From contig NZ_CP038141.1 in assembly GCF_006542355.1 (NCBI RefSeq), forward strand, positions 1,556,001 through 1,620,000: 64,000 bases of DNA, in the 5' to 3' direction. The position numbers and the translations under genes are program-made. This DNA is from Swingsia samuiensis. GTDB taxonomy: Bacteria; Pseudomonadota; Alphaproteobacteria; Acetobacterales; Acetobacteraceae. Below are positions 32,349 through 35,916 of this stretch, piece after piece (position 1 is the first letter of the stretch; each line of letters begins with the position of its first letter). The notes beneath the pieces are model-generated. The model saw nothing but the letters and a program-made list of their open reading frames with translations. It was not told where the DNA came from and did not search any database.

Positions 32349-33353
32349 ATGAAATATAAAGTTAAATCGGGAGATACATTAAGTAAAATTGCAAAACATT
32401 TTCATGTTAGTTGGCGTATAATTGCAAAAAAGAATAACATTTTAACCTCAAATCTTATTCATATCGATGATTTTCTCGATATCCCATTATTACATACTCA
32501 TACTCATACTCATACTCATACTCATACTCATACTCATACTCATACTCATACTCATACTCATACTCATTTGAAAAATGTACAATTGAATAATTCAGTTCAA
32601 GATACAGTAAGTGGGCCTATTAAATTAGGGGATCTCTCAATGCGTTATGAAACGGGTTATAGTCCTGGGCAAGAGCATTTGGCTGCAGGACGTGTTTCTA
32701 CAGGCATAGGTGATGCAGGTGGAGTATCTTATGGAGCGTATCAACTTAATAGTAAAGCCGGAGATAAAGTGAGAGATTTTCTCTCTAATGAGGGGGCATT
32801 ATGGCAAGCTCAGTTTAATGGATTGGATGAGACTATTTCTGGTGGGGATTTTGAAAAAAAATGGAAACAGATTGCTGATATTTCACCAGTAGCTTTTTTT
32901 CGAGCGCAACATGAATATATTAAAAGAACAAATTATGGTATGACTGTAAGTCGTGTTGAAAAAAATACGGGCATTAATTTAGATACTTTTTCTATAGCAG
33001 TAAGAAATGTCGTTTGGTCAGTGTCAGTACAGCATGGTGGGGCTCATAAAATATTAGAAAGGGCACTTCATGATTTAAATAAACAAGATTTTTTACTTAA
33101 GGGAAACTTATTAAATAATTCACCTGATATGAGTGGGTCGTTTTGGCAGTTTAATCCAGACCGAGACTTTAAAGAATATATTTTTCAAAATGAGATGAAA
33201 AGTTTAGATCGTGATTTGATTAAAGCTATATACAAGGAAAGGAAAAAATATCTGCATACTGATACAAAAATGTCACCGAATAGTATAATGGATAACGAGC
33301 ACCGATATAACAAAGAACTTCCTGATGCGTTAGCAGAGTTGGATCGATCATGA
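32349..33353 (+). CDS. LysM-linked muramidase effector of VgrG-associated type
   Basis: 334 aa. Residues 1-47 are a LysM domain (MKYKVKSGDTLSKIAKHF...NNI...I-x-x-DDFLDIP). Residues 49-73 are a pure (His-Thr)12-His linker. From ~95 a peptidoglycan hydrolase domain follows: LSMRYETGYSPGQEHLAAG, STGIGDAGGVSYGAYQLNS, FFRAQHEYIKRTNYGM, and VRNVVWSVSVQHGGAHKIL. This pattern (RYE-G...G-GD-GG-SYG-YQL...QH-FI...VVWS-AVQHG) is that of cell-wall hydrolases attached to or secreted with VgrG in type VI systems. No signal peptide. The next gene, overlapping by 4 bp, encodes a periplasmic lysozyme-inhibitor-like protein, the expected immunity partner. The region is markedly AT-rich compared with the structural genes, indicating acquired cargo. 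Confidence 0.75.
   Translation: MKYKVKSGDTLSKIAKHFHVSWRIIAKKNNILTSNLIHIDDFLDIPLLHTHTHTHTHTHTHTHTHTHTHTHTHLKNVQLNNSVQDTVSGPIKLGDLSMRYETGYSPGQEHLAAGRVSTGIGDAGGVSYGAYQLNSKAGDKVRDFLSNEGALWQAQFNGLDETISGGDFEKKWKQIADISPVAFFRAQHEYIKRTNYGMTVSRVEKNTGINLDTFSIAVRNVVWSVSVQHGGAHKILERALHDLNKQDFLLKGNLLNNSPDMSGSFWQFNPDRDFKEYIFQNEMKSLDRDLIKAIYKERKKYLHTDTKMSPNSIMDNEHRYNKELPDALAELDRS
32493..32567. repeat. Hexanucleotide microsatellite (CATACT)12
   Basis: Twelve perfect CATACT units followed by CAT inside the LysM effector, encoding alternating His and Thr. Perfect identity between units suggests recent expansion by slippage. Unit gain or loss keeps the frame and would only change linker length. Confidence 0.92.
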
Positions 33354-33745
33354 AAACACTATCGTTTATAACCACTTTAGCTTTATCAACTAGCATTTGT
33401 TTTGCGTCAGACTTTGAACAGTGTCGCAAACAAGCGGACTCTGTTGATCCTCAAATAATCGATTGCCAAGATCAAGAAATGGCAAGAGAAGACGCAGCAA
33501 TTAATAAATTATATCAGCAAATATTAGAAAAACTAAAAAGCCAACCAAAAGCTGTTTCTACAATGAAAGACGCTGAACGTGCATGGATAAAGTATCGTGA
33601 AGCTAATTGTGGGCTTATCTCTGTGGTCTTTGGTGATGCTTCGGCAGATCATATCAATAAAAATGATTGTTTTATAGATATGACATCTACTCGCATTAAA
33701 GAACTTGAGAAATGGAACACTTCAAGGACTGTTAACGAGGAATAA
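33350..33745 (+). CDS. Periplasmic LprI/DUF1311-type lysozyme inhibitor, probable immunity protein
   Basis: 131 aa. Sec signal peptide in residues 1-19 (MKTLSFITTLALSTSICFA). The mature part is a DUF1311/LprI domain: FEQCRKQADSVDPQIIDC, MAREDAAINKLYQQIL, KDAERAWIKYREANC and a final IDMTSTRIKELEKW helix, with four Cys in the expected spacing. LprI-type proteins inhibit lysozymes. It overlaps the stop of the muramidase effector as ATGA, so the two are co-translated. I infer that it shields the lysogen's own wall from that effector. Confidence 0.75.
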   Translation: MKTLSFITTLALSTSICFASDFEQCRKQADSVDPQIIDCQDQEMAREDAAINKLYQQILEKLKSQPKAVSTMKDAERAWIKYREANCGLISVVFGDASADHINKNDCFIDMTSTRIKELEKWNTSRTVNEE

Positions 33746-33855: not shown

Positions 33856-34740
33856 TCACTTTTCTTTGCGCTGCATTGTCCCCGCCATGAACAATGCCAC
33901 ACACCATCCGAATAATGTCCAACCTAAAAGGAGATTAATAAAAGCAACCATTCCAATATTCTCATTGCCGCGCTTCACGGCAAATATGGTCGGTAGCATG
34001 TATATATATAAAAAAATAATACCAAATATTATTAATATTAGTAAAAAAATTATATGAAATGGACTTAAATCGGCTTTTTTTGTTGATGTGTCTGTTTTAT
34101 ATCCGCTTATATTTGATGAATTTAATTCGTTATTTATTTGTCGATCTTCATTATTACCATTACCATTTAATATACCTGCATCGTCATCCGAAATAAACCC
34201 GTTAACGAGCGGGCGGTTATTGACGCGCTGCCATGTTTCTATGGCCTGACGAACGGATGAGCCGTAAACACCGTCTATTTTTGTATTTGACGGCAAGAAA
34301 CCTAATTCTGCCAACCTCTTCTGCAACGCGATATGCTCATCAATCGGTCTATTCGCCTCTTCTAGAGCAGGGCCGCTTAAACGTTGTTTATATTTTTCAG
34401 TCAGCTTTTCTGTTTCGTTTTGAAAGCAGGTGGGGTCAACGTCTTGCCGTCCGTTTGTATCTGGAGCCCCCTGCAAACATTGAGCATTGCTTTTCTGGTC
34501 TTCGATAACTTCTTTTTTCAATGATTGCCAACCAGCGCGTCCTACTTGTTGACGTAGTGCATAATATGTTTGATCGAAGATAAGCTCCTGCTTGGCGGAA
34601 TCGCTATCGTCGCACAGTAGATGGGCGATACTATTACTTGGAGAAACTCTAGAACATTCAAAGTCAGGATGATAAGTCTGCGCTGTTGCGTGAAAAGCTA
34701 TAAACAACGGAAATAAAGCAATCAGACTAACTTTGTTCAT
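33856..34740 (-). CDS. Exported fusion: LprI-like domain, peptidoglycan-binding domain, superinfection-immunity membrane domain
   Basis: 294 aa. Residues 1-20 form a signal peptide. Residues 26-120 resemble an LprI/DUF1311 lysozyme-inhibitor domain (FECSRVSPSNSIAHLLCDD, four Cys, a WQSLKKEVIEDQKSNAQC block). Residues 135-191 are a peptidoglycan-binding PG_binding_1 fold (LQKRLAELGFLPSNTKIDGVYGSSVRQAIETWQ). After a polar linker there are two membrane helices (about 228-255 and 262-288), whose sequence LPTIFAVKRGNENIG, FINLLLGWTLFGWCVAL fits the Imm_superinfect family of phage T4 Imm. T4 uses two separate proteins, Imm (blocks DNA entry) and Sp (inhibits the tail lysozyme). Here equivalents appear joined. 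Exclusion of other phages is a strong inference, not shown. Confidence 0.72.
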   Translation of the reverse strand: MNKVSLIALFPLFIAFHATAQTYHPDFECSRVSPSNSIAHLLCDDSDSAKQELIFDQTYYALRQQVGRAGWQSLKKEVIEDQKSNAQCLQGAPDTNGRQDVDPTCFQNETEKLTEKYKQRLSGPALEEANRPIDEHIALQKRLAELGFLPSNTKIDGVYGSSVRQAIETWQRVNNRPLVNGFISDDDAGILNGNGNNEDRQINNELNSSNISGYKTDTSTKKADLSPFHIIFLLILIIFGIIFLYIYMLPTIFAVKRGNENIGMVAFINLLLGWTLFGWCVALFMAGTMQRKEK

Positions 34741-34969: not shown

Positions 34970-35032
34970 ACATACTATATACGCGCATATAGTTCGAGCG
35001 GCAACAGGAAATCCTACCTTCCTGCTCCGCTC
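34963..35032. promoter_or_regulatory. rha promoter with RHH operator and leader hairpin
   Basis: Plus-strand -35 TTGACA (34963-34968) and a CATATA -10 at 34986-34991 give 17-bp spacing. ACTATATACGCGCATATAGT (34974-34993, 18 of 20 palindromic) overlaps both. Downstream a hairpin (GAGCGG..CAGGAA / TTCCTG..CCGCTC, 34996-35032) would sit in the rha 5' leader. The arrangement suggests RHH-controlled expression of the antirepressor-like gene. Confidence 0.55.
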
Positions 35033-35058: not shown

Positions 35059-35916
35059 ATGCCAACAGCTAATATGCTTGTTAGCACACTTCCAAATAAT
35101 CTCGCTATGTCCAGTTTAGAAATTGCGGCACTTACTGGCAAAAAACATCTGCATGTCATTCGCGACATTAAAAAAATGATCTCAGATTTATATGATAGAG
35201 ACGCTACAAATTTGGACAATAGAATAGATCCCCCAAGTTTGGGGAATCTACATAAAATAGATGATCCAAATATGGATCATCCCAAAATTCAAGGAATTAC
35301 CGTCACAAAAGACAAGCGAGGCTATATCTCCCGCATTGATCTCGACTATAGCCACACCATCACATTAGTAACTGGGTACGATACAAAAGCGCGGAAGAAA
35401 GTCGTCGATCGTTGGATGGCGCTTGAAGCGAAAGAGCAATCCACGCCTACTATCAAACCATCCCCTCGCAAGCGCAAACCAGCCTTTGATGTTGCCTTCA
35501 AACGTTTACTCAACGTTGCGGAACTACTGCCAACGCTTGACGCCAATCAAAAGCGCCTGAAAGCAGCGCGTGGAACGTATGAACTGACTGGCGTTAATCC
35601 GCTTGAGCTTCTTGGTGAAACATCGCTCCCTGCACCTACGAATGAGAACTACCTCACTCCAACGGAGATTGGCACGCATATCGGCTTATCAGGCCAGCGC
35701 ATTAATCAAGTTCTCATTGAGCAAGGCTACCAGATACGAGTTAAAGGATCATCGACGGGCAGTTCTTACGAGCCGACCGAGAAAGGCAAGGACGTCAGTC
35801 GGTTCTTTGACACCACGCGCACGAATGGGAAAGGCTCCCAGCAGCAGCTTAAATGGTCGAACCAGATGGTATCTGTTCTGCGCCCTTTCGCACCTCGCAA
35901 GGAGAAAGTGTCATGA
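35059..35916 (+). CDS. Rha-family phage regulatory protein
   Basis: 285 aa. The N-terminal ~120 residues match phage regulatory protein Rha: MSSLEIAALTGKKHLHVIRDIKKM, GYISRIDLDYSHTITLVTGYD, ARKKVVDRWMALE. A basic linker (KPSPRKRKPAFD) leads to a second region with a winged-helix part (YLTPTEIGTHIGLSGQRINQVLIEQGYQ), also typical of phage antirepressors. Rha proteins interfere with lysogeny or host functions. Its stop overlaps the next start (ATGA). Expression is probably controlled by the RHH protein encoded divergently. Confidence 0.8.
   Translation: MPTANMLVSTLPNNLAMSSLEIAALTGKKHLHVIRDIKKMISDLYDRDATNLDNRIDPPSLGNLHKIDDPNMDHPKIQGITVTKDKRGYISRIDLDYSHTITLVTGYDTKARKKVVDRWMALEAKEQSTPTIKPSPRKRKPAFDVAFKRLLNVAELLPTLDANQKRLKAARGTYELTGVNPLELLGETSLPAPTNENYLTPTEIGTHIGLSGQRINQVLIEQGYQIRVKGSSTGSSYEPTEKGKDVSRFFDTTRTNGKGSQQQLKWSNQMVSVLRPFAPRKEKVS

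What the first reader, a model, noticed from the sequence alone, without database searches (positions are those of the whole stretch)
33856..34740. Single protein that seems to combine both T4 superinfection barriers
Seen: signal peptide, LprI-like four-Cys domain, PG_binding_1-like domain, polar linker, two membrane helices with a T4 Imm-like P-TIFAVKRG...NLLLGWT-GW-VAL block. Known: T4 excludes related phages with two proteins, Imm (blocks DNA entry at the membrane) and Sp (inhibits the tail lysozyme). Inference: this protein tethers a lysozyme inhibitor to the wall and to an Imm-type membrane domain, stopping an incoming phage at both steps. I do not know a described system with this architecture.
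Basis: partly seen in the sequence, partly recalled or inferred. Interest (0 to 1): 0.78.

Follow-up and report, generated by a model that had tools for sequence, protein, structure and literature searches.

The report
Likely phage-exclusion protein with swappable end
A dormant virus in an acetic acid bacterium carries a protein that probably keeps rival viruses from injecting their DNA; it joins a membrane part related to a known exclusion protein of phage T4 to a cell-wall-holding part, and relatives carry the same wall part with quite different ends.

Summary
The 294-aa protein (33856-34740, minus) is a composite: apparent signal peptide; four-Cys helical domain that Pfam LprI misses but profile comparison, and less firmly fold, place with LprI/DUF1311; PG_binding_1; disordered linker; C-terminal Imm_superinfect (Pfam 1.1e-14; T4 Imm itself, E 6e-9). 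It lies in a prophage. The Imm half of the reading is well supported. The Sp half is not: T4 Sp shows no relation to the LprI-like domain, and lysozyme inhibition by LprI domains is disputed. A true LprI gene sits next door (33350-33745).

Beyond the finding: LprI-like + PG_binding_1 is a constant module, largely of acetic acid bacteria, with exchangeable C-termini (Imm, TM + Mrr nuclease, TM + DnaJ, others). It was found at 11 distinct loci with phage genes, in 8 opposite to late genes. In 5 of 11 it follows a ribbon-helix-helix-type gene divergent from an antirepressor gene, the place of sieA in P22. Best reading: an inner-membrane, wall-tethered superinfection-exclusion protein acting at DNA entry. 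No function was tested. Against it: a clade without recognised phage context has the same three domains. New variant of a known kind.

The parts
33856..34740 (-). gene of the 294-aa composite protein
   Evidence: ORF; domains; AF2 pLDDT 86.0, pTM 0.64
34678..34740 (-). apparent Sec signal peptide, residues 1-21
   Evidence: read from sequence; no predictor run
34351..34677 (-). four-Cys LprI-like domain, residues 22-130
34198..34332 (-). PG_binding_1, residues 137-181
34075..34146 (-). disordered linker, residues 199-222
   Evidence: pLDDT under 50 but for one residue
33883..34005 (-). Imm_superinfect core, residues 246-286; hydrophobic helices from residue 227 to 288
   Evidence: Pfam E 1.1e-14; T4 Imm E 6e-9; AF2 helices
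34787..34969 (-). ribbon-helix-helix repressor-like gene directly upstream, same strand
   Evidence: PHROG 4738 1.6e-7; RHH_1 E 0.0017, 18.6 bits, just under cut-off 20.5
35059..35916 (+). Rha/Ant antirepressor gene, divergent from the RHH gene
   Evidence: PF09669 1.4e-8; PHROG 63 3e-20
33350..33745 (+). true LprI-domain secreted protein next door; the only PF07007 match in this genome
   Evidence: Pfam E 1.3e-19; genome search
32349..33353 (+). LysM + T6SS_VgrG3-like_C protein paired with the LprI gene
   Evidence: Pfam 7.6e-11 and 1.9e-37

Best explanation
It is a prophage moron (an extra gene carried for the lysogen's benefit) that excludes superinfecting phages at the DNA-entry step. Inferred path: the protein is exported; the LprI-like domain and PG_binding_1 lie in the periplasm on the peptidoglycan; the flexible linker leads to two Imm-type membrane helices in the inner membrane. 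The Imm part spoils the inner-membrane entry site, as T4 Imm is reported to do. The periplasmic module holds that part under the wall and may touch the incoming tail's lysozyme or tape-measure complex. Shown: domains, homology to T4 Imm, prophage location, recurrent placement beside an RHH-antirepressor pair, exchange of C-termini in relatives. Inferred: expression in the lysogen, topology, exclusion itself, and any contact with a tail lysozyme.
For: Imm homology: Pfam 1.1e-14, PHROG 1039 'immunity to superinfection' 4.6e-16, T4 Imm E 6e-9; predicted phage immunity proteins match in fold with TMt 0.72 and 0.79, though at E 0.07 and 0.26. Location: a 47.8-kb viral contig holds the same gene at 100% and the same neighbours, with integrase, CI, portal, baseplate hub. 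Position: in 5 of 11 distinct loci with phage genes (window, L065, L108, L110, L188) the gene follows an RHH-type gene and diverges from an antirepressor-type gene, like sieA-orf59a-mnt | arc-ant of the P22 record. In 8 of 11 it runs opposite to neighbouring late genes. Effector swaps: a relative in the same slot carries TM + an Mrr-type nuclease part (L110); L109 has a Shedu SduA_C ORF just upstream. Tape-measure homologues near family genes carry a Pfam phage tail lysozyme in 2 of 7 cases (L065, L111) and an SLT domain in a third, L109.
Against: No phenotype. A clade with a further N-terminal domain has the same three domains, or a single TM in place of Imm. Its loci showed no homologues of the window's prophage proteins other than this gene, and against the viral contigs only antisense ORFs of the family gene itself and one L080 ORF like an ORF of L109. 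Imm_superinfect is common in bacteria: 21 of 150 host-family genomes, and three of the ten proteins scanned have SHOCT, so it may be only a membrane module. RHH plus antirepressor was found in 5 of 11, not all. In the window the gene runs with the terminase genes, not against them. The window's own tape measure, and those of L066, L107 and L110, had no Pfam lysozyme at E 0.001.
Confidence: 0.55

Rival explanations
1. An envelope-maintenance protein of acetic acid bacteria, picked up by prophages as a fitness gene. The Imm-like helices are only an anchor and the LprI-like domain regulates the host's own wall enzymes, as proposed for ScwA.
For: The three-domain order also occurs in a clade with an extra N-terminal domain of single origin and no recognised prophage context; a single TM replaces Imm in 8 of its 18 members. 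ScwA, with an LprI domain, controls a murein transglycosylase and gives no lysozyme resistance (PMC7933661, passages).
Against: Prophage forms are AT-richer than their surroundings and sit in moron positions. The Mrr nuclease and the Shedu neighbour suit defence better. The Imm pattern is kept.
Confidence: 0.27
2. One reading: the LprI-like domain inhibits the incoming tail lysozyme and the Imm domain blocks DNA entry, so both T4 barriers are joined in one protein.
For: The domain is LprI-like; some related phages have Phage_lysozyme2 on the tape measure (2 of 7); LprI proteins are named as putative immunity to wall-degrading T6SS effectors (PMC12135965 and PMC8867033, passages).
Against: No relation to T4 Sp. 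The domain is far from LprI (no Pfam hit). ScwA does not inhibit lysozyme.
Confidence: 0.15
3. It protects the lysogen or delays lysis against the phage's own wall hydrolases, for instance the neighbouring LysM-VgrG3-like protein.
For: Adjacent LysM + VgrG3-like gene.
Against: That gene already has a true LprI partner; in loci L065-L111 neither of the pair is found except on the window's own contig.
Confidence: 0.03

Closest known systems
T4 Imm (PF14373, Imm_superinfect)
   Same: Homologous membrane segment, 31% identity over 51 positions, profile 98.3%.
   Different: T4 Imm is 83 aa without a periplasmic domain; here an exported, wall-binding part of about 200 residues precedes it.
T4 Sp (spackle)
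   Same: Both have a secreted part that could meet tail lysozyme (inference).
   Different: No sequence relation to this protein or to LprI found.
P22 SieA
   Same: Gene position downstream of an RHH-type repressor gene and divergent from an antirepressor gene (for P22); inner-membrane block of DNA injection (PMC10883804, passages).
   Different: Sequence not compared. In the window the gene runs with, not against, the terminase genes, and no second, arc-like gene was recognised there.
SNIPE (PMC13190303, abstract and one section read)
   Same: Membrane-placed anti-phage proteins with diversified domains; the family's TM + Mrr members could act at the same step (inference).
   Different: SNIPE is DUF4041 + GIY-YIG; this family has a periplasmic wall-binding constant part and a different nuclease.
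LprI / DUF1311 (PF07007)
   Same: Remote homology and similar fold; four conserved Cys.
   Different: Below Pfam detection; fused to PG_binding_1 and a variable C-terminus.

Membership tests
Imm_superinfect (PF14373) | score over the curated cut-off | tested here: met
   54.5 bits against 27.9
Imm_superinfect (PF14373) | homology to T4 Imm | tested here: met
   E 6e-9; 98.3%
Imm_superinfect (PF14373) | blocks DNA entry of superinfecting phage | not testable with these tools
   needs phage assays
LprI (PF07007) | score over the curated cut-off | tested here: not met
   no hit at E up to 10
LprI (PF07007) | remote sequence homology | tested here: met
   hhalign 94.3%, 13 controls at most 0.5%
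LprI (PF07007) | DUF1311 fold (3gi7) | tested here: inconclusive
LprI (PF07007) | lysozyme inhibition | not testable with these tools
   disputed even for LprI-domain proteins (PMC7933661 passages)
PG_binding_1 (PF01471) | score over the curated cut-off | tested here: met
   35.7 bits against 23
T4 Sp-like | sequence relation to Sp | tested here: not met
   best E 0.16 to the whole protein; profile 0.3%
SieA-type exclusion module | gene directly behind an RHH-type gene, divergent from an antirepressor gene | tested here: met
   window; also L065, L108, L110, L188: 5 of 11 loci
SieA-type exclusion module | gene opposite to the late genes | tested here: not met
   not met in the window or L067; met in 8 of 11 loci; L188 mixed
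SieA-type exclusion module | sequence relation to SieA | not tested
   no comparison made

The most novel reading that the evidence does not exclude
The LprI-like + PG_binding_1 module is the constant, wall-tethered sensor or dock of an anti-phage platform of acetic acid bacteria and their prophages. It detects or meets the injecting tail in the periplasm and carries interchangeable effectors to that spot: an Imm-type entry blocker, a membrane-anchored Mrr nuclease, a DnaJ part and several unknown ones. Prophages trade effectors by recombination inside the gene, often in the slot that holds sieA in P22.
Probability: 0.33. Interest if true: 0.82.

Novelty: new variant of a known kind. Interest (0 to 1): 0.62.

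Why it matters
How T4-type Imm proteins stop DNA entry is, to my knowledge (recalled), unsettled. A natural fusion that ties an Imm domain to a wall-binding periplasmic module, in a family where a nuclease takes the Imm domain's place, gives a direct way to ask what the two effectors share: perhaps a place under the wall where phage DNA enters. It would also give the industrially used acetic acid bacteria a testable superinfection-exclusion family.

Tried and rejected
Full-length relatives in deposited phages: tblastn against 50,697 phage records at E 1e-5 found none. The Imm part alone, at E up to 10, matched 1,375 records, so many may be chance; the 40 listed have E 3e-6 to 8e-5 and include T4-like Imm. 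Solved structures by sequence: one match at E 0.88 only. Whole-model fold searches gave no Foldseek match at E 0.001 or better; nor did the domain alone. PADLOC has no model for the protein at E 0.01. Plasmids: one weak match in 72,556 records, Methylobacterium, 24.7%. The domain's profile in the class: 4 of 385 genomes, own included, with at most 12 candidates scored in the genomes listed. In the host order 52 of 299 genomes match the LprI-like + PG-binding part, all 52 of the host family; how many of the 299 belong to other families is not shown.

The idea that the window's LysM/LprI pair travels with the family was rejected: among loci L065-L111 only the window's own contig holds them (L188 not examined), and a viral scan, which finds close relatives only, found only that contig. 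The idea that the hexamer repeat in the LysM gene is a frame-shifting switch was rejected: its period is 6, so it stays in frame. Promoter-like sites were no more frequent than in shuffles (11 found, 9.4 +/- 2.6 expected; terminators 4 against 2.1 +/- 1.4).

Literature: the terms 'superinfection immunity protein', 'peptidoglycan-binding' and 'fusion' together are in no held paper; 'Imm_superinfect' is in 2; three of four of superinfection exclusion, peptidoglycan binding domain, restriction endonuclease domain, transmembrane gave one paper, unrelated by its listing. Only open-licence PMC papers were searched, and of the larger result lists I saw only the first 10 to 20 rows.

Limits: the genome-contig scan used one peptide pattern, so it is not a census. 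The LprI profile used 22 of the 33 matches. C-terminal clusters were made at BLASTP E 1e-4; L092 and L094 probably belong with the single-TM cluster. L104 lacks a PG-binding match and is not in those counts. For the tree, L106 (same contig as L068) and L082 (copy of L076) were dropped, L188 was added, and L111 was labelled Mrr because Mrr_cat lies in the next ORF. L074 (integrase ORF nearby) and L081 (CI homologue) may be prophages too and are not among the 11. Where no RHH or antirepressor is reported, L067 could not show one: its gene begins 494 bases from the contig's start.

Full report
What is there. The ORF at 33856-34740 on the minus strand encodes 294 residues. Pfam finds Imm_superinfect at residues 246-286 (E 1.1e-14) and PG_binding_1 at 137-181 (E 9.6e-9), both over their cut-offs. 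PHROGs gives 'immunity to superinfection' for the C-terminus (4.6e-16). T4 Imm, read from the T4 record, matches directly (E 6e-9) and matches a profile of this family's Imm parts at 98.3%. The AlphaFold2 model has mean pLDDT 86.0 and pTM 0.64, with a disordered linker at about residues 199-222. The gene is single copy in its 2.19-Mb genome.

The neighbourhood. The gene lies in a prophage that is also a viral contig of 47.8 kb, with integrase, CI repressor, portal, major head protein, baseplate hub and a tape-measure protein whose C-terminal part resembles endolysins by PHROGs though not by Pfam. Directly upstream on the same strand is a small RHH repressor-like gene, and divergent from that a Rha/Ant antirepressor gene. 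In the P22 record the order is sieA-orf59a-mnt on one strand and arc-ant on the other; that Mnt and Arc are RHH proteins is recalled. The same order (antirepressor-type gene; RHH-type gene divergent from it; family gene) is seen in L065, L108, L110 and L188. L065 and L110 also have a second, arc-like gene on the antirepressor side (PHROG 228, 3.4e-7, and PHROG 3178, 0.0064). The RHH-type genes next to the family gene in L065, L110 and L188 are related to P22 Mnt (E 1.9e-8 to 0.002 in a ten-sequence comparison); those of the window and L108 are not detectably so, but both hit PHROG 4738, a repressor. [quoted passage not shown]

Relatives. Of 299 host-family genomes 50 match the protein or part of it. 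A genome scan returned 40 loci: 39 with records titled as genera of acetic acid bacteria or as Acetobacteraceae, one a proteobacterial MAG. A viral scan returned 7, and an Imm-profile scan added L188 among the best 80 of 528. Removing duplicates (L105 is the window; L106 is L068), 11 distinct loci with phage genes carry the family: window, L065, L066, L067, L068, L107, L108, L109, L110, L111, L188. In 8 it runs opposite to flanking late-gene homologues, in 2 (window, L067) with the terminase genes, and L188 is mixed. Contig lengths suggest that the host belongs to the genus Gluconobacter: genomes of the same genus carry contigs as long as those of G. kanchanaburiensis, G. potus and G. aidae; this is an inference.

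Swappable ends. Of 48 ORFs with both constant domains, 47 have a C-terminus of 25 residues or more. These fall into 14 single-linkage clusters: 16 (Imm), 6 (Mrr), 6 (single TM), 6 (DnaJ), 3, 2 and eight singletons; two ORFs are duplicates (L106, L082) and L105 stands for the window. Mrr_cat was confirmed by Pfam in L076 and L090 and in the ORF after L111's; the Mrr parts of L110 and L090 hit nuclease models in PADLOC. The window's constant part is 64.9% identical to that of L066, which has an unrelated C-terminus, but at most 55.4% to any Imm-bearing member. L074 and L078 share 85.5% in the constant part and have unrelated C-termini. L065 and L066 align at 80% from 44 bases before the gene to base 245 of it, then not until the downstream flank, at 79%. 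L107 and L111 are 92-93% alike in the downstream flank but hold different cassettes. On a tree of 47 constant parts the C-terminal type changes at least 15 times among 12 types (minimum 11), the extra N-terminal domain arose once, and a prophage label (the 11 loci plus L074 and L081) changes 9 times. In the window gene the C-terminal part is 31.6% G+C against 45.3% for the constant part and 47.8% for the prophage; but 13% of equally long windows in the prophage are as AT-rich as the whole gene. The nine other phage-borne members measured (all but L188) are AT-richer than their loci in both parts; so are some members without recognised phage neighbours (L076, L077, L090), whereas the clade with the extra N-terminal domain mostly lies near the G+C of its loci. 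L111 has a free 90-residue Imm ORF directly before the constant-part ORF, whose Mrr part lies in the next ORF. L109 has a Shedu SduA_C ORF about 130 bases upstream on the same strand.

Mechanism. The best reading is exclusion at DNA entry by a wall-tethered Imm protein, confidence 0.55. What is shown is composition, homology, position and modularity; exclusion, expression and topology are inferred. The most serious rival is an envelope-maintenance role. The clade with the extra N-terminal domain carries the same order of domains, shows no prophage context in our comparisons apart from one L080 ORF like an ORF of L109, and in 8 of 18 members has a plain TM in place of Imm. Imm_superinfect is also common in bacterial proteins, including ones with SHOCT. 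Against a mere anchor: eleven positions of the Imm pattern (Y, P, A, N, GWT, GW, A, A) are invariant in 11 sequences of this family, which seems more than an anchor would need.

Known systems. A review describes T4 Imm and Sp as preventing DNA injection (PMC11436027, passages). SNIPE is a membrane-bound nuclease that cuts phage DNA during injection and has diversified N-terminal regions (PMC13190303, abstract and the section on homologues). A Campylobacter Imm homologue is in an operon induced by phage infection (PMC6024767, passages). A paper on acetic acid bacterial phages mentions superinfection exclusion in one passage, in general terms (PMC8566455). In the listings I saw no paper on this architecture.

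Noticed in passing
32349-33353 and 33350-33745: LysM + VgrG3-like_C gene overlapping a secreted true LprI gene, a pair like the LysM/LprI effector-immunity pair reported for T6SS (PMC8867033 passages); inside a prophage. A viral scan for close relatives of the LysM protein found only this contig.
   Followed up: partly
32493-32567: Perfect 12.5-copy hexamer repeat inside the LysM gene giving a long His-Thr linker.
   Followed up: no
L109:9205-9822: Shedu SduA_C ORF just upstream of a family member in a prophage tail region.
   Followed up: no
L095, L096, L097, L099, L100, L101: Bombella, Saccharibacter and one unnamed Acetobacteraceae member carry a DnaJ-type part at the C-terminus behind one or two hydrophobic segments (Pfam DnaJ in the related L010 and L014).
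   Followed up: no
L083:8957-10852 and L088:8957-10852: A member of the clade with the extra domain lies about 2 kb from homologues of the host genes that flank the tRNA-Arg end of the window's prophage.
   Followed up: no
about 34979-34996: Inverted repeat in the short stretch between the RHH and antirepressor genes; possible operator (read by eye).
   Followed up: no
L228, L234, L220: Other viral Imm_superinfect proteins also have a secreted-looking N-terminal part that is not the LprI-like module.
   Followed up: no
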